From positions 1 through 24,343 of the IMG/VR virus record IMGVR_UViG_3300042122_000006: a stretch of DNA of 24,343 bases; one strand, given 5' to 3'. The notes beneath the pieces were generated by a model. That model was not told where the DNA came from, ran no database searches, and saw only the letters and a program-made list of their open reading frames with translations. The position numbers and the translations under genes were made by a program. Position 1 is the stretch's first letter; each line of letters starts with the position of its first letter. Positions 13,509 through 19,521 of the stretch are shown one piece after another. The stretch is from a virus.

Positions 13509-13991
13509 TTAGCTCGACGACTTAGGGACGAGGACAGGATCGCCCGATACTTGAATGCCGACGGTCGATGTGACCATGGTGTTCAGCGCGAAGGTGAACG
13601 GGAAGCTGTTCATGTAACCTTCGAAGGTGATCCAGCTACGGGTTGGTGGCAGAACGAATTCATCGTCGCCCGAACTGTCGAGGCCGGTGGTCGGGTTTTC
13701 GGTGCCGTCAGACAAACCGATAGCCCATTGCAGGGTGACGCCAGCGGACTTCAGTTGGTGCAGACGGATGTGGTTCACGTCGGACGGATCGAACATCAGT
13801 CCGAAAGTCGCCGCGCCTGGAGTGGCGAGGCCGGCTTCGTACGTGCGCGCCAGGTCGTTCAGACAGGTCGTTTCGATCTGGTCGATCGCGGTGTCAATAC
13901 CGTCGATAGAGGTGATGCAGCCCACGTCAAGCAGGGCGCCAGTGTCTGGGTCGATCGTAAACAGATCGCTCCCCTGTGATTTTAGGGTCAT
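13509..13991 (-). CDS. major tail tube protein (lambda V-like)
   Basis: This 160-residue beta-rich protein begins MTLKSQGSDLFTIDPDTGAL and has CITSIDGIDTAIDQIETTCL, then FGLMFDPSDVNHIRLHQL, WAIGLSDGT, and FEGYMNSFPFTFALNTMVTS. The combination of an early I-x-G-I/T-x-x-x-D-x-I-E-T-T strand pair, a central FDP segment and the F-x-G-Y-x-x-x-F-P-F strand is typical of tail tube proteins of the Phage_tail_3/gpV type. It forms the stacked hexamer rings of the tube and should be one of the most abundant virion proteins. It sits between the tail terminator and the chaperones as expected, and a promoter-like sequence lies 37-64 bases upstream of its start. Confidence 0.87.
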   Translation of the reverse strand: MTLKSQGSDLFTIDPDTGALLDVGCITSIDGIDTAIDQIETTCLNDLARTYEAGLATPGAATFGLMFDPSDVNHIRLHQLKSAGVTLQWAIGLSDGTENPTTGLDSSGDDEFVLPPTRSWITFEGYMNSFPFTFALNTMVTSTVGIQVSGDPVLVPKSSS

Positions 13992-14056: not shown

Positions 14057-14425
14057 TCAGGTCCGTTCGACCAGCCAATCCAGGTCGAAGCTGGTTCGGT
14101 ACAGCTTCGTTTCCTCGTCGCGCATATCGCCGCGGTAACCGGTCACGTAGGATTGTTCCTCTATCGCGTATCGGATCGCTTTAGCGACGGCGGTTGTCGA
14201 TTGGGTTGTCAGGCCGTACACGTCCACCTGAAGGCTGGCGCGGTCGGCATCAGGCCGACAGTTCAGCATGTTAAAAGGCGAACCGCCGACCCACTGGTAG
14301 ACGACGTAGGGCTTCAGACCGTCTTGCGGACTTTGGCCGAACGGATAGATGCGCGGCGACGTTCCACCGAGCAGTGCCTGGACGGCCGTATCAGCTTTGC
14401 ACACCGAGTAGAAGGGTACGTCCAT
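14057..14425 (-). CDS. tail terminator / completion protein (DUF3168-like, gpU-like)
   Basis: This 122-residue protein has the DUF3168-type order: an N-terminal helix with DTAVQALLGG, then PRIYPFGQSPQDGLKPYVVY, a strand with R-A-S-L-Q-V-D-V-Y-G, a helix AVAKAIRYAIEE, and a C-terminal strand TSFDLDWLVE. Proteins of this family cap the tail tube and join it to the head. The gene lies between the HK97 gp10-like protein and the tail tube, the usual place. It starts within the stop of the gene before it (TGATG). Confidence 0.82.
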   Translation of the reverse strand: MDVPFYSVCKADTAVQALLGGTSPRIYPFGQSPQDGLKPYVVYQWVGGSPFNMLNCRPDADRASLQVDVYGLTTQSTTAVAKAIRYAIEEQSYVTGYRGDMRDEETKLYRTSFDLDWLVERT

Positions 14426-14868
14426 CAGTTGAGCCCCAATTTGACGAGCTGGAATTTTGCGCTAGAAAGAAATTCTTGAAACACGGCTTGCTGGTTTTGG
14501 CCGAGAGCATTCCGCATGAAGGGTTGCGCGCGATTCTTCGATGTACCCAGTTCGACCCACCACCAGTAATACGTATTGCCGCCTCGCTGCCCGCGTTTCG
14601 TCTTGCGTACGCCGACCGATATTTTGGTGCTACCGGTCTCGTTGAAGAATTTCGTGTCTTCGACTAGAGCGATGTTTTTCGAGATATCCGGCGCAGTGGT
14701 CGGATCATCAATCGCGCCGGCACGCTGGATGGCGTCCTTCAAAACGATGTCCATGGCGTCTTTCGCCGCTGGCACGACAACCTGGCGCTGCAGCTCTTGT
14801 GGCAGCGTGCGAAAAACACGGCTTAGCTCGTCAGCGCCTTTTAGCTTGTAGGTGATGTAGTCGGCCAT
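14425..14868 (-). CDS. HK97 gp10-like neck/tail completion protein
   Basis: This 147-residue protein starts MADYITYKLKGADELSRVF and carries LPQELQRQVVVPAAKDAMDI, a central loop TKISVGVRKTKRGQRGGNTY and YWWWVELGTSKNRAQPFMRNAL. The W-x-x-x-E-x-G-T-x-x-x-x-A-x-P-F-x-R motif is the hallmark of the HK97 gp10 family, which acts at the head-tail joint. I place the start at 14868 because gaggg lies about 8 bases upstream and because a longer reading frame to 14949 would run back through a terminator hairpin. The family normally lies directly after the head-closure gene; here the accessory island separates the two. Confidence 0.88.
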   Translation of the reverse strand: MADYITYKLKGADELSRVFRTLPQELQRQVVVPAAKDAMDIVLKDAIQRAGAIDDPTTAPDISKNIALVEDTKFFNETGSTKISVGVRKTKRGQRGGNTYYWWWVELGTSKNRAQPFMRNALGQNQQAVFQEFLSSAKFQLVKLGLN

Positions 14869-14909
14869 GTCGTCGCCCTCAGTTTGCCGGGAGTTTATCA
14901 CAGGCAAGA

Positions 14910-14940
14910 AAAAGCCCTGAGTTTTTAGGTCAGGGCTTTT
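14910..14940. terminator. bidirectional intrinsic terminator closing the accessory island
   Basis: The sequence aaaagccctga and its complement tcagggctttt form a perfect 11-base-pair stem with a 9-base loop (14921-14929). Reading leftwards on the minus strand the stem is followed by a T-rich run (ttttctt), and on the plus strand the T's of the stem end serve the same role. It lies between the small exported protein and the gp10-like gene, so it should stop transcription from the island before the tail genes. Confidence 0.85.
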
Positions 14941-14960
14941 ATCGTGCATCCAGGCGTTGG

Positions 14961-15263
14961 TTATGCGGCGGAGCCGCTATCCCAGTCCGGGACGCCGAAC
15001 GGTGCAGCGCTGGTCAGACCGAAGTGGTTGCTCAAAGCGATCAGGTTGGAAGCGACAGGGCTTTCTTCTTCGCCACTACCCGTTCGCCATTGCGTCAAGG
15101 TGAGTTCATGCTTGATGTGCTCACCTCCGTATGGCTGGGCGTAAGCCACCGCGCGGCAAATGCTCTCTCCGAAACCGACACGCTCGTAAGCGTAGGCGCC
15201 GAAGGAAGCGAAGCACATCGCCAGGGCGAGACCGATAAAACTCAGACAGCGTTTGATCATCAT
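14961..15263 (-). CDS. small exported protein of unknown function
   Basis: This 100-residue protein begins MMIKRCLSFIGLALAMCFAS and then FGAYAYERVGF: a basic start, a hydrophobic core and an A-Y-A site, a convincing cleavable signal peptide (about 25 residues). The mature ~75 residues have one cysteine and no recognisable domain (SICRAVAYAQPYGGEHIKHE, then NLIALSNHFGLTSAAPFGVP). It would act in the periplasm or outside. It is the last gene of the accessory island, between the methyltransferase and a strong terminator, a typical moron position. ggag lies 7 bases before the first of two ATG codons. Superinfection exclusion or host-envelope change are possible roles, but nothing in the sequence proves them. 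Confidence 0.75.
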   Translation of the reverse strand: MMIKRCLSFIGLALAMCFASFGAYAYERVGFGESICRAVAYAQPYGGEHIKHELTLTQWRTGSGEEESPVASNLIALSNHFGLTSAAPFGVPDWDSGSAA

Positions 15264-15309
15264 TCTGAAACTCCATTGCAATGGTATGTATTCCGGAAAG
15301 TGCAAGTTA

Positions 15310-15930
15310 CTACGCCAAGCGCTTGAACGCAAACGACGCGATGCCTTCTCGGCCGAGTTCGGTTTCCGCCCAGTTCACTTCCATGCACTCGAAGCCGTGT
15401 TCGCCGCACCAACGCACGAATCCTTCAAGCGAGAAATAATGGATGTGTTCGCCTGGCTTCATGTGTTTGGACTGCGCCCATTCAGTAGCCGTTTCGCAAA
15501 TAGGGATCGAGACGAACAGCCATTCCTTCACGCGCTCCAGAAGCTTTTCGGGTTCCGGGATGTGCTCCAGGCTATCCCAACAGGTGATCGCTCGAACCTC
15601 TTCGCCGCCGTACGGATCGCGGTAAGCGTAGATGCTCCGCAGCCAGGAGATCGCGTCGGGGCAAACGTCGAAGCCCATGCCCTGCGACTCCTGGACGAAG
15701 CGCCCGCCGCCGATGCCGATGTCCACGACTTCAGCGGGGCTGGTGTATTTCTGCACCAGTTCGACCCGCGCTTTGGTCAGCAGGCCGCCCATTTTCGTGG
15801 CGTCAAGCTTTTGATAGTTGGCGAAATACTCGCCGCCGTAGAGCATGGCCGGGCGGGTATGAAACCCCTGCCCCCTCTCAGGACTCCACAAAAAACAGTC
15901 CGTCAAACCAGTTGGTAAGTTTTGAGTCAT
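15310..15930 (-). CDS. SAM-dependent methyltransferase (class I, Methyltransf_23-like)
   Basis: This 206-residue protein has the SAM-binding glycine loop VVDIGIGGGRFVQ (68-80), an acidic strand end GFDVCPDA (86-93), the motif CWDSLEHIPEPEKLLERV (117-134) and the late segment EHIHYFSLEGFVRWCGEHGF (161-180). D-x-L-E-H-I-P and H-x-x-Y-F-S together are characteristic of the Methyltransf_23-type small-molecule or sugar methyltransferases, not of DNA methylases; no DPPY/NPPY motif is present. Its N-terminal 53 bases overlap the glycosyltransferase, so the two are likely made together and could act on the same glycan. The start is 15930, with agagga about 9 bases upstream. The substrate is unknown. 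Confidence 0.85.
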   Translation of the reverse strand: MTQNLPTGLTDCFLWSPERGQGFHTRPAMLYGGEYFANYQKLDATKMGGLLTKARVELVQKYTSPAEVVDIGIGGGRFVQESQGMGFDVCPDAISWLRSIYAYRDPYGGEEVRAITCWDSLEHIPEPEKLLERVKEWLFVSIPICETATEWAQSKHMKPGEHIHYFSLEGFVRWCGEHGFECMEVNWAETELGREGIASFAFKRLA

Positions 15931-16711
15931 AATCGGAAATCCTCTTGTCGCAGCTGTGGTCACGAAGACGGCAACGGCAGAAATTATGGGGTACAGCGAA
16001 AGTTATCATATCGTTTGGTGGTGAGATTAATTCTGGCGCATTAAAGCCCCCCTGGCCGCCGCACACAACCCAAGCTTTGGTCTTTAATGCCAAGGCTGCC
16101 GGTACTATCCACCCGATACCTCCTATCAAAGCGCTGGCGCCCTCCGCAGCGCCTAGCAGTTCAGTTACGCTAAGTTCCCCTGATAGGTAATTAATATCGG
16201 CTTTCGGCAATTCCCCTACAGCCCACTCCTTCCCATCCTCAAGGTCCGCTACCAAGATCGTGAGATACCCCCTTCGTTTTGCCTCCTCGCACGCGGCGGA
16301 TAGGTAAGAAGGATCGGGGTTTCTAGCGTCTGCTCTCCATTCCGCACGAACGGTAGCTGGCCGGATTAAGACGTAAGGCTTGTCAGTCGGGCGCCAGGGG
16401 AAACTAGGGACTTTAAAGGCTCCGAAAGGTTTTCCGAATCTCCGTCCCATCCCTTGGAGGATTCCTTCCCCGGAATAAGCTATTTGCAGGATTGGGAGGC
16501 CCCGGGGTTGTGTTTCCCAGCTGCTCAGGCGGTCAACATTTTTCTTCTGCGTCCGTAGCCGAGTATCAGGGCGAACGAAATGGATGCCTTCTACAGCGGA
16601 GTAAAGTTGCGGCCATGGAGTGTTGATGTAAATGGGCCGTTCCAATTGGTCTACGAAGGCTAATTGATAAAGATTATCACCTAACCCCGCCATCGAACTA
16701 ACTATTGGCAT
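15878..16711 (-). CDS. glycosyltransferase family 9-like protein
   Basis: This 277-residue protein resembles GT9 (heptosyltransferase-type, GT-B fold) enzymes. It begins MPIVSSMAGLGDNLYQLAFV, with G-L-G-D-N where the family has its first nucleotide-sugar loop region. It continues with YINTPWPQLYSAVEGIHFVR, a central strand PYVLIRPATVRAEWR, and the C-terminal half AEGASALIGGIGWIVPAALA followed by KTKAWVVCGGQGG, equivalent to the donor-binding domain. The end has a Cys cluster FCRCRLRDHSCDK. It is shorter than bacterial heptosyltransferases (about 330-350 residues). Donor and acceptor are unknown; virion proteins, phage DNA or host LPS are all possible. It overlaps the HNH gene by 14 bases and the methyltransferase by 53 bases. 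Confidence 0.75.
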   Translation of the reverse strand: MPIVSSMAGLGDNLYQLAFVDQLERPIYINTPWPQLYSAVEGIHFVRPDTRLRTQKKNVDRLSSWETQPRGLPILQIAYSGEGILQGMGRRFGKPFGAFKVPSFPWRPTDKPYVLIRPATVRAEWRADARNPDPSYLSAACEEAKRRGYLTILVADLEDGKEWAVGELPKADINYLSGELSVTELLGAAEGASALIGGIGWIVPAALALKTKAWVVCGGQGGFNAPELISPPNDMITFAVPHNFCRCRLRDHSCDKRISDYDSKLTNWFDGLFFVES

Positions 16712-17408
16712 TTTGCCCGTCCCATCGATTATTTTTGCGGATGTTATCCAAGGCCCATAGCGGCTGCAAATTCGAGAGCGCCCAGCATTGTTTTATCACG
16801 GAATCCGTATCGACCGTAAAATCGAATGACGACACAGGGCGCACGTGGTCTATGTGCCATTCGCCGTAGTTGTCCCACGTCATGCCTTCAGTGAACTGCG
16901 AAGCTAGATGCGCCTTGAGATCGTCAACTGAGTAGTCTACGAACTGCTGCCAGGTGCGGTTGTTCTTATAACGCTTAACCGCCGCGTATAAGCGATTGCC
17001 CATATTGCAGCGGATCTTGAAATTTACATCTGTTTTTCGTTTCTCTTTCAACTGAACCTTTATCGCTTCCCTACTTCTCTCAAAGTCTCTCCGACGCTCC
17101 GCTTTTAGGACTTCAGGTTCAGTTACCTTCCTGCGCTCCCTGCGGGCCTTCGCCGTAGCTAAATTCTTGAGACGGCCTACTTCCATCTGCTCCCCGAAAA
17201 TTTCCGGATTCGCTAGCTTGAAATCCCGCCTTGCTTTTTGCCTAGCGTTAATCCTCGCTTTATTTTCTAGGGCCCACGCTTTGCTTCTATTCGAGTTACA
17301 GAGCTTGCACTGCGAGCTAAATCCGTAAGAAGTGTATTTGCTTTTTGAAAATTCACTGAGCGCCTTGGAAGTTTGGCACCTGTTGCAGAATCTCGTTTCA
17401 CTTGGCAT
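16698..17408 (-). CDS. HNH homing-type endonuclease
   Basis: This 236-residue protein has a Cys4 zinc ribbon at the N-terminus (C8, C11, C34, C37), a long basic helical linker (residues 40-125) and a C-terminal HNH nuclease: EWHIDHVRPVSSFDF (H185, D187, H188), LSNLQPLWALDN (213-222) and a final R-K-N-N-R. This is a free-standing homing endonuclease of the kind common in phages; it cuts DNA of related phages lacking the gene. The gene looks more AT-rich than its neighbours. It has its own promoter-like sequence, a structured leader and a terminator just upstream, yet its end overlaps the glycosyltransferase by 14 bases. ggag lies about 8 bases before the ATG. Confidence 0.88.
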   Translation of the reverse strand: MPSETRFCNRCQTSKALSEFSKSKYTSYGFSSQCKLCNSNRSKAWALENKARINARQKARRDFKLANPEIFGEQMEVGRLKNLATAKARRERRKVTEPEVLKAERRRDFERSREAIKVQLKEKRKTDVNFKIRCNMGNRLYAAVKRYKNNRTWQQFVDYSVDDLKAHLASQFTEGMTWDNYGEWHIDHVRPVSSFDFTVDTDSVIKQCWALSNLQPLWALDNIRKNNRWDGQNANS

Positions 17409-17441
17409 TGAAGCGCTCCAGTCTAGAGGCAGTCGAAAGGT

Positions 17442-17491
17442 GTTGCGGCAAGCAGTGACTAACTGCCTTTCAGGTGCCCCCTAGCCGCAAC
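17442..17491 (-). other. inverted repeat in the leader of the HNH gene
   Basis: GTTGCGGC (17442-17449) and GCCGCAAC (17484-17491) are perfect 8-base complements. Between them gcagt-gacta-actgc can form an inner hairpin. Alternative pairings exist: ggcagt near 17428 with actgcc, and gaaagg near 17435 with cctttc. The RNA leader of the HNH gene can thus fold in at least two ways. Whether this regulates translation is unknown. Confidence 0.55.
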
Positions 17492-17494
17492 GTG

Positions 17495-17503
17495 ATTCTA
17501 GCA
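17495..17503 (-). promoter_or_regulatory. extended -10 promoter for the HNH gene
   Basis: The minus strand reads TGCTAGAAT: a TGN extension followed by TAGAAT (five of six bases of the sigma-70 -10 consensus). No good -35 box is present at 16-18 bases, as is usual for extended -10 promoters. It lies directly behind the terminator at 17515-17540 and about 90 bases before the HNH start. Confidence 0.5.
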
Positions 17504-17514
17504 AACATTTACGC

Positions 17515-17540
17515 AAAAAGAACCCTTCCGAAGAAGGGTT
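17515..17540 (-). terminator. intrinsic terminator with TTCG loop
   Basis: On the minus strand AACCCTTC, loop TTCG, GAAGGGTT form a perfect 8-base-pair stem with a very stable tetraloop, followed by CTTTTTG. It ends transcription that comes from the MptE-like gene and thereby separates the HNH, glycosyltransferase and methyltransferase genes from the head operon. Confidence 0.88.
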
Positions 17541-17638
17541 AATGAGGGTCGCACGGAGAATTCTTGTGATGCGCTTTTTAACGAGTGCGCACCGCGGTTC
17601 ATCTCGGAGGAGTCGTTGACCCTCGGCAGGACTTAAAT
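17541..17638. other. untranslated stretch after the MptE-like gene
   Basis: Together with the terminator, promoter and leader just to its left, this forms a 230-base gap (17409-17638), the longest non-coding stretch in the window. In this part I see no gene, no tRNA (no TTCRA loop) and no repeat. A 34-codon minus-strand frame crosses it but runs through the terminator and has no proper ribosome binding site. Confidence 0.6.
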
Positions 17639-18196
17639 TTATCTCTGCACATCACAAGTGTCAACAACCTTTTGCAACTCTTTTTCGAGATGCCCGAACC
17701 GGTAGCATTCCAGCGCCGTTTCACGCGAGCAGTTGACGACCTTATCGCGCTGCGGCAGCCGGGCGTGTTGTTGCGCCCATTTGCGACACCGGAGTTCGTC
17801 AGGGTTCTTCGTGGTTGGATGGTCGCCGTGCCAGTGCGTACCTCCTTGCACCGTGCAGTCGTACCCAAGAAGCAGGACGCGTTCAGCACCCAGCTGAAAG
17901 GCCAGTTCGATCGCACGAAGGCCACTATTATATTCACCGTATACAGTGTGCAGGTTGAGACCGTGCTTCGCGGACGCCTGGCGGGTACATGTCCAGCGTT
18001 TCGGGCCGTCAGGTACTTGGCTAACGTTAGCATCCCACCACGCGAGATCACCTGCGTAAAGGTGATCGCACCACGGGGCTAGCTGCCAGGAGTTGTTCAC
18101 GGCGATTGTGGGGAGCCCGGCCTGCTTAACGAGTTCGCAGTCGTGCGCGTTGAGGCTCGGGCCGGAGGCGATGCAGACGAAGGTGTTAGCCTTCAT
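17639..18196 (-). CDS. MptE-like / DUF115-like protein
   Basis: This 185-residue protein has the N-terminal loop CIASGPSLNAHDC (8-20, G-P-S-L), then TIAVNNSWQLAPW, LYAGDLAWWD, a central NSGLRAIELAFQLGAERVLL followed by LGYDC, the motif HWHGDHP (121-127) and NCSRETALECY near the end. The GPSL loop and this order of motifs are found in MptE-like (6-hydroxymethylpterin diphosphokinase-like, DUF115) Rossmann proteins. In bacteria these often stand near sugar-modification genes, and in phages they are usually annotated as hypothetical. Its true substrate is unknown. It starts within the end of the head-closure gene (11-base overlap), so it is co-transcribed with the head operon and is the first gene of the accessory island. 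Confidence 0.72.
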   Translation of the reverse strand: MKANTFVCIASGPSLNAHDCELVKQAGLPTIAVNNSWQLAPWCDHLYAGDLAWWDANVSQVPDGPKRWTCTRQASAKHGLNLHTVYGEYNSGLRAIELAFQLGAERVLLLGYDCTVQGGTHWHGDHPTTKNPDELRCRKWAQQHARLPQRDKVVNCSRETALECYRFGHLEKELQKVVDTCDVQR

Positions 18197-18524
18197 TTAC
18201 GCCGGCCGAGCAAGGTGCACTCACATAGTCTCGCCCGCTTTCCTGATCCGGCAGCCATGCGTGGACGTTGTAGATATCCCCGTTGTGCAAAATGCGTTGC
18301 TTGGCATTCAGGCCGGGGCGCTGGCGAATCACGATGCGCGCGATAATCTCGGACTGAATCGCCGCAGCGGCCAGGAATTCCCGACCGCTGGCCGGAGCAA
18401 TGCGCGCCGGGACGTTCGCGAAGACCGTTACCCAAGCCTCAGTAAAGCCTCCCGTGTCAGGATCGCGAACCTCTGTCCAGTCTTGGATGTCCACCCGATG
18501 GCGGTACTGGCCGGCGCGGCTCAT
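18186..18524 (-). CDS. head closure / head-tail joining protein (SPP1 gp16-like)
   Basis: This 112-residue protein starts MSRAGQYRHRVDIQDWTEVR followed by DPDTGGFTEAWVTVFANVPA and RIAPASGREFLAA. The order (R-H-R-V-x-I-Q, then D-x-x-G-G-x-x-x-x-W, then v-x-A-x-i-x-x-x-x-g-x-E) is the standard signature of the Phage_H_T_join family, which closes the portal vertex after DNA packaging. The C-terminal half (IVIRQRPGLNAKQRILHNGD) also fits. The start at 18524 has a strong ggagg 7-8 bases upstream and overlaps the previous stop (ATGA). A frame extending to 18548 lacks this signal. Confidence 0.9.
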   Translation of the reverse strand: MSRAGQYRHRVDIQDWTEVRDPDTGGFTEAWVTVFANVPARIAPASGREFLAAAAIQSEIIARIVIRQRPGLNAKQRILHNGDIYNVHAWLPDQESGRDYVSAPCSAGVNEG

Positions 18525-19156
18525 GGGCGTTCCTCCCAAATGAACCACAGCGTTCCGGTGGCTGCGCCGCTGCCGAAGTTCTCATATCGCACGTAATAAT
18601 TGCCTGCCGCTACGCCGCGTTCGTCGCCGACGACATTGCCCACGGTGGATTGCTGCGCCGTGGCCGTAGCGGCGACTACCCGGTGAACGTCGAACACGAA
18701 ACCGTCGGTGTGAGTGCCTCCTGCGGTAAAACTGATCTGCGGTACGTACAGCGGTGTGGGGCGCTCCGTCATGTTGTTCTTGCCGATCACGGGGAGCGTC
18801 TCGGAAAAAGTTCCGCCTGGCGTGCCTCCGGAGGTATTGGTGATCCTCAGACTGCCCGAGTCCAGTTCAACGGCCTGCTCCGCGAGGATCGCGTTAATCG
18901 GCACTACGACCCTGATAACTAGGGTTTGCCCGGCGGCGATGTTGAATTCTCGGAAGGTTCTGAACTCCCTTCCCGCAAAGAATCCGGTCTGCCCTACATC
19001 CACGCGCAGGCGCCGATTCGGGCCGTCGCCGCCGTCGGTGTATAGGTCAAACGGCGAGTGTGCGATAACGCGCTCCGCGTGAGTCCCGTCGCCCATGTCG
19101 GTTTCTTTGCGGTACGGGCCGCCGAACAGCTTCCGTATGTAGTCTCCTACTGGCAT
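18521..19156 (-). CDS. beta-rich structural protein, unknown
   Basis: This 211-residue protein begins MPVGDYIRKLFGGPYRKETD and continues as a Gly/Thr/Val-rich chain with alternating strands (FREFNIAAGQTLVIRVVVPI, LELDSGSLRIT-like segments, YYVRYENFGSGAATGTLWFI). There is no signal peptide, membrane helix or known catalytic motif. Its place between the gp6-like connector and head-closure genes, and the jelly-roll-like strand pattern, suggest a virion part such as a head decoration or neck protein. That is inference; I do not recognise the family. It overlaps both neighbours (10 bases with the connector, ATGA with head closure). Confidence 0.65.
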   Translation of the reverse strand: MPVGDYIRKLFGGPYRKETDMGDGTHAERVIAHSPFDLYTDGGDGPNRRLRVDVGQTGFFAGREFRTFREFNIAAGQTLVIRVVVPINAILAEQAVELDSGSLRITNTSGGTPGGTFSETLPVIGKNNMTERPTPLYVPQISFTAGGTHTDGFVFDVHRVVAATATAQQSTVGNVVGDERGVAAGNYYVRYENFGSGAATGTLWFIWEERP

Positions 19157-19521
19157 GCTGGGTCCCTCAAGCTGTATAGCAGTGCGGTGACAGGTTTCGG
19201 CAGATAGCCCATTTCGTAGGCGCCCTCCCTATTCTCGTCCCGGTCCCTGTAAAAGAAGCCTATCTGCAGGAGCGTGGCGGCCTGCACGGCGTATTTCACC
19301 TGCTTATCGCCGGAGCTGTCGACAACGTAAACCGGATCGCCGGAGCTATCAAGGATCGGGTCGTCGTTGCTGTCACGCTCAACCTCGTAGGGGCTTGCGG
19401 ACTTGAGGTAGTTCTTCACCGCTTCCGACGCCGCGCCAATGTACGCCTCGATCAATACATCATCTTCGTCGTGATCCATGGCCAGGTGACGCTTAGCGCG
19501 GTCAAGCGTGACGTACATCAT
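19147..19521 (-). CDS. head-tail connector (HK97 gp6-like)
   Basis: This 124-residue protein begins MMYVTLDRAKRHLAMDHDED followed by DVLIEAYIGAASEAVKNYL. The family signature is seen here: an early L-x-x-a-K-x-H-L, the D-x-x-D-x-l-I-x-x-Y-I-x-A-A motif, and a C-terminal helix pair with VKYAVQAATLLQIGFFYRDR and a final P-x-x-v-x-A-L-L-x-x-x-R. A ring of this protein binds under the portal. The middle insertion with repeated S-S-G-D (DPILDSSGDPVYVVDSSGDK) is a short internal repeat. The start at 19521 overlaps the previous stop (ATGATG), and a second ATG follows directly. Confidence 0.9.
   Translation of the reverse strand: MMYVTLDRAKRHLAMDHDEDDVLIEAYIGAASEAVKNYLKSASPYEVERDSNDDPILDSSGDPVYVVDSSGDKQVKYAVQAATLLQIGFFYRDRDENREGAYEMGYLPKPVTALLYSLRDPACQ

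What the first reader, a model, noticed from the sequence alone, without database searches (positions are those of the whole stretch)
14961..18196. Accessory island between head closure and tail genes: candidate phage glycan-modification system
An MptE-like protein, a GT9-like glycosyltransferase, a sugar-type methyltransferase and a secreted protein are inserted between two genes (head closure and gp10-like) that are normally adjacent. Terminators lie inside and at the end. The glycosyltransferase and methyltransferase overlap by 53 bases, so they are probably made together. Sited inside the virion operon, they could glycosylate and O-methylate a virion protein (tail tube, fibre or CBM-like protein), or change host LPS late in infection. 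No DNA-modification genes such as hydroxymethylase are visible here, which makes DNA a less likely target.
Basis: partly seen in the sequence, partly recalled or inferred. Interest (0 to 1): 0.75.

Follow-up and report, generated by a model that had tools for sequence, protein, structure and literature searches.

The report
Phage cassette for sugar-coating its tail
A bacterial virus carries, inside its particle-building genes, two sugar-adding enzymes and a methyl-adding enzyme that most likely decorate its own tail, and the probable attachment site on the tail protein can be read from the sequence and tested directly.

Summary
The island is real. It is a conserved MptE-like/GT/MT trio with an HNH endonuclease and a small secreted gene added in this lineage. 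In 99 loci found through the GT, MptE lies upstream in 74 of 74 testable and MT adjacent in 90 of 93. Pseudomonas phages D3 and PAJU2 carry it. Relatives without it have Hc1 directly beside gp10.

By predicted fold both transferases resemble protein O-glycosyltransferases: MptE resembles flagellin transferase Maf (Z 14.1), GT resembles TibC (Z 17.9).

New lead: a loop of the major tail protein carries [D/N]-S-x-[G/N/D] in 64 of 70 phages with an MptE cassette and 3 of 60 without. The contrast holds in 7 of 7 phylogenetically independent pairs and also in cassettes with other partner genes. The head-tail adaptor carries up to three copies, with weaker statistics.

Best reading: MptE attaches a first sugar to that serine, GT extends it, MT methylates it. 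Fold, conservation and covariation are computed; the sugar, the enzyme activity and the modification itself are inferred. Variant of known virion glycosylation.

The parts
17639..18196 (-). MptE-like / Maf-like glycosyltransferase (185 aa), proposed initiating enzyme; phrog_4603 ('alpha-2,3-sialyltransferase')
   Evidence: AlphaFold2 pLDDT 89.1; best solved fold Maf 5mu5 Z 14.1 over 167 residues
15878..16711 (-). GT-B glycosyltransferase, TibC/GT9-like fold (277 aa), proposed extender; phrog_6804 (unknown function)
   Evidence: AlphaFold2 pLDDT 92.8; TibC 4rb4/4rap Z 17.9, Foldseek E 6e-10; invariant D12, W201, C245-C247-H252-C254
15310..15930 (-). SAM-dependent methyltransferase (Methyltransf_23, phrog_6564), proposed O-methyl cap; start ATG 15930, overlaps GT by 53 bp
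   Evidence: overlap conserved in 90 of 96 loci
13509..13991 (-). major tail (tube) protein, proposed acceptor protein
   Evidence: relatives annotated major tail protein
13668..13679 (-). D-S-S-G (residues 105-108) in a tail-protein loop; Ser106 = proposed glycosylation site
19147..19521 (-). head-tail adaptor Ad1, proposed second acceptor
   Evidence: homology to PAJU2 Ad1
19363..19374 (-). D-S-N-D copy of the motif in Ad1 (Ser51)
19339..19350 (-). D-S-S-G copy of the motif in Ad1 (Ser59)
19309..19320 (-). D-S-S-G copy of the motif in Ad1 (Ser69)
16698..17408 (-). HNH/endonuclease VII-like gene, probably a mobile (homing-type) insertion, not part of the pathway
   Evidence: phrog_1035; found at several different junctions in relatives
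14961..15263 (-). small signal-peptide-like ORF, lineage-specific neighbour
   Evidence: relative in 6 of 99 loci
17521..17540 (-). terminator-like hairpin after the MptE-like gene
14908..14938 (-). strong terminator-like hairpin before gp10

Best explanation
The trio is a virion O-glycosylation cassette. The MptE-like protein, a minimal Maf/CstII-fold transferase, attaches a first sugar (probably a CMP-activated keto-sugar acid available in the host, such as Kdo) to a serine in a D-S-x-G loop of the major tail protein, and probably to similar serines of the head-tail adaptor. The TibC/GT9-fold enzyme adds a second sugar, and the methyltransferase, made with it from overlapping genes, methylates the glycan. 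Shown here by computation: trio conservation, folds, insertion at one junction, and covariation of the serine motif with MptE. Inferred: catalysis, order of steps, the sugars, and that the glycan is on the particle. The HNH gene and the secreted ORF are not part of the mechanism.
For: Folds: MptE best Maf 5mu5 Z 14.1/167 residues, then CstII 1ro7 Z 10.8, SteA 10.8, archaeal MptE/HPPK 8sd5 10.5; GT best TibC Z 17.9, above GT9 structures Z 15.2-16.8. Trio: MptE upstream 74 of 74 testable, MT adjacent 90 of 93, the three exceptions being L041-L043; L041 joins MptE and GT in one 887-aa ORF. Site: always in the connector/tail region, three main orders; cassette-less relatives have Hc1 next to gp10. 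Acceptor: [DN]S.[GND] in the tail-protein loop in 64 of 70 with MptE vs 3 of 60 without; 7 of 7 independent pairs on a tree built with the loop masked. On sequences new since the motif was noticed, 14 of 17 vs 3 of 56; column scan Ser 67 of 70 (S/T 70 of 70) vs about 2 of 60, pairs 8:0. It follows MptE, not the partners: 11 of 13 cassettes with other partners have it and the other two have Thr. Ad1 carries the same motif, often three copies. DS[SN]G in virion ORFs: window 3 vs 0.2 expected, PAJU2 3 vs 0.2, D3 2 vs 0.2. Maf enzymes O-glycosylate surface Ser/Thr and one accepts CMP-Kdo (PMC11339370, passages).
Against: No modification has been observed; I found no mass data. The motif was noticed after the fact and then tested. 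TibC's sugar-binding Arg286 aligns with Leu185, and its metal-finger spacing differs, so the GT donor is uncertain. Half of cassette-less tail proteins have a Ser/Thr in a similar turn (30 of 60, relaxed motif). Bare tail proteins without any cassette exist, so the glycan is not needed for tail assembly as such. D3- and Psp6-type adaptors lack D-S-x-G (19 of 66 cassette Ad1s lack it), and only 8 cassette-less adaptors could be compared, 3 of them with one copy of the motif. The unrelated Mulvp2 tube has none. PAJU2 ORF010 (MptE) is annotated 'structural protein', which a pure enzyme model does not explain. Foldseek alone ranked archaeal HPPK above Maf for MptE, with weak E-values.
Confidence: 0.62

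Rival explanations
1. The cassette glycosylates and methylates a different virion protein (capsid, fibre, p13935-like protein); the tail-loop serine only travels with the cassette as a linked mosaic block or a structural turn.
For: Cassette, Ad1 and tail protein lie within a few kb and can recombine as a block; MptE-like genes also occur in phages with unrelated tail proteins (Mulvp2, Eowyn, P7, CcrSC); the Mulvp2 tube lacks the motif.
Against: Seven to eight independent contrasts give the same residue while no other scanned column in MTP, tail terminator, gp10, Hc1 or TAC comes close; p13935 occurs widely without the trio.
Confidence: 0.2
2. The enzymes change host LPS core late in infection (heptose or Kdo transfer plus methylation), for example to stop released phage binding debris or to exclude other phages.
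For: GT fold is also close to LPS heptosyltransferases WaaC/WaaF (Z 15.2-16); CstII acts on lipooligosaccharide (recalled).
Against: Best folds are protein transferases; D3 and PAJU2 have separate O-antigen genes outside the virion operon; placement inside virion operons is constant; the tail-motif covariation is unexplained.
Confidence: 0.08
3. The trio modifies phage DNA by glycosylation and methylation.
For: Some phages do glycosylate DNA (recalled).
Against: No hydroxymethylase or other hypermodification gene is annotated in D3; folds match protein transferases.
Confidence: 0.02
4. The MptE-like protein acts on the serine as a phospho-, diphospho- or nucleotidyl-transferase (as in MptE/HPPK), and GT/MT act elsewhere.
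For: MptE/HPPK and thiamine pyrophosphokinases share the fold (8sd5 Z 10.5; ranked first by Foldseek); the P7 operon also holds a protein phosphatase.
Against: Maf is the best match by more than 3 Z units; MptE is joined to GT domains in L041; other cassettes also pair it with glycosyltransferase-like and methyltransferase genes.
Confidence: 0.05

Closest known systems
Maf flagellin glycosyltransferases (5mu5; C. botulinum Maf)
   Same: Best solved fold for the MptE-like protein (Z 14.1); O-glycosylation of surface Ser/Thr of a self-assembling filament protein; one Maf accepts CMP-Kdo (PMC11339370, passages).
   Different: 185 aa against a 632-residue chain: only the central domain; phage-encoded; the acceptor here would be a tail protein and there is a candidate sequon, whereas none is known for Maf (same paper).
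TibC / BAHT autotransporter protein heptosyltransferases (4rap, 4rb4)
   Same: Best solved fold for GT (Z 17.9); N-terminal invariant Asp; W201 aligns with TibC Trp305; a metal-finger-like Cys/His motif in the C-terminal part.
   Different: No N-terminal beta-barrel, Arg286 not conserved, motif C-x-C-x4-H-x-C instead of Cys 339/342/358/370; donor unknown.
Mycobacteriophage virion glycosylation (Che8, Rita; Freeman et al. 2023)
   Same: Phage-encoded glycosyltransferases that decorate the particle; cited for major capsid proteins (PMC11256854, passages).
   Different: Other phages and hosts, other placement (near the 3' end of the genome in Maravista), capsid target; I could not read the original paper.
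P1/P7 pmgO-pmgP-ppp-pmgQ (hdmB-C-ppp-D) operon
   Same: PmgO/HdmB is a homologue of the MptE-like protein (41-42% identity) near a phrog_1962 glycosyltransferase.
   Different: Myovirus, other partners, no GT/MT of these families detected; labelled head morphogenesis but nonessential in P1 (PMC10695390, passages).

Membership tests
Maf flagellin glycosyltransferase | Maf central catalytic-domain fold | tested here: met
   5mu5 Z 14.1, rmsd 3.1, 167 aligned
Maf flagellin glycosyltransferase | Full-length multidomain protein (about 630 residues) | tested here: not met
   185 aa; aligned to chain residues 270-517 only
Maf flagellin glycosyltransferase | Pfam MptE-like (PF01973) above cut-off | tested here: not met
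   23 vs 34.6 bits
Maf flagellin glycosyltransferase | Transfer of a CMP-nonulosonic acid to Ser/Thr of a protein | not testable with these tools
   needs enzyme assay or mass spectrometry
GT42 sialyltransferase (PHROG label) | CstII-like fold | tested here: met
   1ro7 Z 10.8, 156 aligned; phrog_4603 3e-54
GT42 sialyltransferase (PHROG label) | Sialic acid transfer | not testable with these tools
   label only
BAHT (TibC/AAH) protein heptosyltransferase | GT-B catalytic fold of TibC | tested here: met
   4rb4 Z 17.9, rmsd 3.0, 246 aligned
BAHT (TibC/AAH) protein heptosyltransferase | Catalytic Asp (D110) at the start of the catalytic domain | tested here: inconclusive
   D12 invariant in 30 of 30 at the matching position of the domain (TibC domain starts at 98), but no residue-level structural alignment was printed
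BAHT (TibC/AAH) protein heptosyltransferase | Sugar-binding Trp305 and Arg286 | tested here: not met
   W201 aligns with Trp305 but L185 with Arg286 (alignment, E 0.39, counted by hand; residues from PMC4358343)
BAHT (TibC/AAH) protein heptosyltransferase | Four-cysteine iron finger (339, 342, 358, 370) | tested here: not met
   invariant C245, C247, H252, C254 instead; a metal site is possible but different
BAHT (TibC/AAH) protein heptosyltransferase | N-terminal beta-barrel | tested here: not met
   model residue 1 aligns with TibC residue 98
GT9 (Pfam/CAZy heptosyltransferase) | Sequence membership by Pfam | tested here: not met
   no Pfam family at E<=1
Phage virion glycosylation systems | Phage-encoded transferases in a virion operon | tested here: met
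Phage virion glycosylation systems | Covalent glycan on a virion protein | not testable with these tools
   needs mass spectrometry of particles

The most novel reading that the evidence does not exclude
A sequon-directed phage O-glycosylation system: an MptE/Maf-like enzyme reads D-S-x-G in the exposed loop of every tail-tube subunit and of the adaptor ring, initiates with host CMP-Kdo, and interchangeable partner cassettes at one genomic junction (TibC-like GT plus MT, or others) decide the outer, methylated sugars. The tail shaft would wear a strain-specific, LPS-core-like coat in place of the extra protein domain that some relatives insert in the same loop.
Probability: 0.25. Interest if true: 0.87.

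Novelty: new variant of a known kind. Interest (0 to 1): 0.72.

Why it matters
Phage particle glycosylation is known from only a few phages. Here genes long labelled hypothetical in classic phages (D3 orf7/12/13, PAJU2, P1 pmgO) gain a likely mechanism, a target and a residue that one mass-spectrometry run can test. A defined acceptor motif would be new for Maf-type enzymes, for which no sequon is known (PMC11339370, passages). Swappable glycan cassettes on tail shafts would bear on how Pseudomonas phages are seen by antibodies and how phages diversify their surface.

Tried and rejected
Sequence searches of the PDB with single proteins or profiles gave no significant match for MptE, GT or MT. 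No defence-system family in PADLOC and no useful NCBIfam hit. No tRNA or Rfam RNA in the window island. p13935 (18521-19156) was considered as acceptor and set aside because it occurs in many phages without the trio. 'Glycan replaces an inserted tail domain' was proposed (16 of 16 trio-less loci there have an insertion in the loop) and weakened: bare tail proteins without any cassette exist; only the one-way rule remains, no trio phage with the insertion. I first recalled TibC's iron ligands as three Cys and one His; the paper says four Cys, so the metal-finger argument was lowered. Megablast of the window's virion half against the phage collection found nothing.

Rows dropped: one search kept 267 tail-protein loci with at least 4.5 kb upstream, at least 140 aa and no X, merged to 144 distinct tail-protein/cassette pairs; those of 200 aa or more (the insertion carriers) were set aside, leaving 130. 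Cassette status means a tblastn MptE match within 6.6 kb upstream; a cassette elsewhere in a genome would be missed. The GT-anchored and MTP-anchored samples contain close relatives and more than one locus of the same contig.
Full report
What is there. The window is a 24,343-base IMG/VR virus record with siphovirus virion genes on the minus strand. Between head closure Hc1 (18186-18548, Phage_HCP) and the gp10/Neck1 gene (14425-14868, phrog_5) lie, in reading order, an MptE-like gene (17639-18196), an HNH/endonuclease VII-like gene (16698-17408), a glycosyltransferase GT (15878-16711), a methyltransferase MT (15310-15930) and a small signal-peptide-like ORF (14961-15263). GT and MT overlap by 53 bases; 90 of 96 loci overlap, by 41-101 bases, mostly 50-56. 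Terminator-like hairpins after MptE and before gp10 fold better than most or all shuffles (z -2.1 and -4.2).

It is a conserved trio. tblastn against 50,697 phage records finds MptE in 74, GT in 29 and MT in 32. Phage D3 has orf7, orf12 and orf13; PAJU2 has gp10-gp11-gp12 in a row between Hc1 and gp13; Psp6, Mulvp2 and the 265-kb Klebsiella phage Eowyn also hold all three. Synechococcus phage BUCT-ZZ01 holds GT and MT, and no MptE was detected in its stretch. Of 99 loci found through GT in IMG/VR and bacterial genomes, MptE lies upstream in 74 of 74 testable and MT adjacent in 90 of 93; among the 69 loci that show all five genes the orders are Ad1-Hc1-MptE-GT-MT-gp10 (37), MptE-Ad1-Hc1-GT-MT-gp10 (22), MptE-GT-MT-Ad1-Hc1-gp10 (6) and Hc1-MptE-GT-MT-gp10 (4, possibly cut contigs). 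L041 carries MptE and GT in one 887-residue ORF, followed by dehydrogenase-like ORFs (the naming of the latter is by eye).

The junction. Loci found through Hc1 all have the trio (36 of 36 testable, of 54 found). Loci found through the tail protein split: 33 of 52 testable have the trio, 16 have nothing and Hc1 abuts gp10, and 3 have MptE with other genes (80 found). In L285 and L281 the MptE-like gene (phrog_4603, 6e-26 and 1e-29) is followed by a methyltransferase and other, mostly unassigned genes, one weakly like capsule-synthesis enzymes. Elsewhere MptE is paired with phrog_1962 glycosyltransferases (P7, phiNP, EP_H11) or with a Methyltransf_23 methyltransferase (CcrSC). MptE is the constant member; partners change.

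Folds. AlphaFold2 models of GT (pLDDT 92.8) and MptE (89.1) were compared with the PDB. GT: best is TibC, the protein O-heptosyltransferase of autotransporters (Foldseek E 6e-10; Z 17.9 over 246 residues), then GT9 enzymes (Z 15.2-16.8). MptE: best is the flagellin transferase Maf (Z 14.1 over 167), then CstII, SteA and archaeal MptE/HPPK (Z 10.5-10.8). Foldseek alone ranked HPPK first with weak E-values (2.4e-3), so the Maf match rests on the second aligner. Neither is a family member by the tests listed: MptE is only the central domain, and GT lacks TibC's barrel, Arg286 and four-cysteine finger (TibC paper PMC4358343 read as passages). They work like these enzymes; donors are open. A Maf that accepts CMP-Kdo (PMC11339370, passages) makes host Kdo a reasonable guess.

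The acceptor. In the tail protein, a loop that in some cassette-less relatives holds an inserted domain of about 85 residues carries D-S-S-G in the window. I noticed this after the fact, then fetched more tail proteins. Of 130 distinct tail proteins without the insertion, 70 have an MptE-like gene nearby and 60 do not. The motif [DN]S.[GND] is in 64 of 70 against 3 of 60; a relaxed motif in 69 of 70 against 30 of 60. On a tree built with the loop masked the cassette changes state 8 times (100 shuffles: mean 43, lowest 35), and in 7 of 7 independent nearest pairs only the cassette member has the motif. On sequences not seen when the motif was noticed the counts are 14 of 17 and 3 of 56; a scan of columns in six virion proteins shows this column (Ser 67 of 70, Ser or Thr 70 of 70, against about 2 of 60 and 29 of 60; pairs 8:0) with no rival in MTP, tail terminator, gp10, Hc1 or TAC. 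The motif follows MptE rather than GT/MT: 53 of 57 with the trio and 11 of 13 with other partners, the other two reading DTAG and DTSG. That the loop is on the outside of the tail is inferred from the insertion, not mapped on a structure.

The second outlier of the scan is the adaptor Ad1 (Ser 64 of 66 against 0 of 8 at one column; 3 pairs). The window Ad1 has D-S-N-D and two D-S-S-G within about 20 residues; 47 of 66 cassette Ad1s have at least one [DN]S.[GND] (35 have three), against 3 of 8 without a cassette (one each); the 19 lacking it include D3- and Psp6-type adaptors, many of which have S-S-[E/D] runs instead. In virion ORFs DS[SN]G occurs 3 times in the window (expected 0.2), only in Ad1 and the tail protein; PAJU2 3, D3 2 (both in the tail-protein ORF), Psp6 1; among cassette-less phages H20 1 (tail fibre), HK022, SOVA965 and PseuP_224 none. 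The looser DSx[GND] is not enriched overall (for example D3 3 against 4.0 expected, window 9 against 4.9).

Reading. The simplest account is cytoplasmic O-glycosylation of tail-tube and adaptor subunits before assembly: MptE initiates, GT extends, MT methylates. P1 tolerates loss of the MptE homologue pmgO, and of pmgP, ppp and pmgQ (PMC10695390, passages), which fits decoration rather than assembly. Against an LPS role, D3 carries iap, O-antigen acetylase and wzy-beta elsewhere and PAJU2 an acetylase. Unexplained: PAJU2 ORF010 is deposited as 'structural protein', so the enzyme may stay on the particle.

Novelty. Virion glycosylation by phage enzymes is known in mycobacteriophages (cited in PMC11256854, passages). 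Searches of the open library for DUF115 with phage and glycosyltransferase (0 papers), tail tube with O-glycosylation (2 papers, unrelated by title and abstract start), major tail protein with glycosylated and heptosyltransferase with virion and glycosylated gave no description of this system; subscription papers are not covered.

Noticed in passing
window 16698-17408; L010-L015, L053-L055, L057, L061, L069-L072, L094: HNH/endonuclease VII-like genes of one family sit at different junctions of the same operon in relatives (MptE|GT 7, MT|gp10 4, gp10|tail terminator 3), as expected of a homing-type mobile gene.
   Followed up: partly
L016:4495-4565, L017:5234-5311, L045:5813-5888, L046:4342-4499, L072:4311-4968 and others: tRNA genes (Trp, Gln, Gly, Met, Ser, Asp) lie in the MptE-GT gap of relatives, inside the late operon; the window has none.
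   Followed up: partly
L041:5173-10692: An 887-aa ORF joins MptE-like and GT-like parts and a further C-terminal part, followed by alcohol dehydrogenase-, TPP-enzyme- and short-chain dehydrogenase-like ORFs near capsid and connector genes (names of the last three by eye): a possible sugar-making cassette.
   Followed up: partly
L286-L305 tail proteins: Trio-less relatives carry a Gly/Thr-rich, repeat-like insertion of about 85 aa in the same tail-protein loop.
   Followed up: partly
L003:6974-7543 (PAJU2 ORF010): The MptE-like protein of PAJU2 is deposited as 'structural protein', like the capsid and major tail proteins and unlike most neighbours; it may stay bound to the particle.
   Followed up: no
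window 18521-19156: 211-aa protein of phrog_13935 (unknown function) between Ad1 and Hc1, found in phages of Pseudomonas, Vibrio and cyanobacteria, sometimes next to GT.
   Followed up: partly
L007:6941-7540 and L187:4001-4552: MptE-like genes left unannotated or annotated with a late start in Mulvp2 and Citrobacter phage phiNP.
   Followed up: no
window 14868-14949: The gp10 ORF opens at ATG 14949 by the terminator hairpin, but relatives suggest the real start is ATG 14868.
   Followed up: partly
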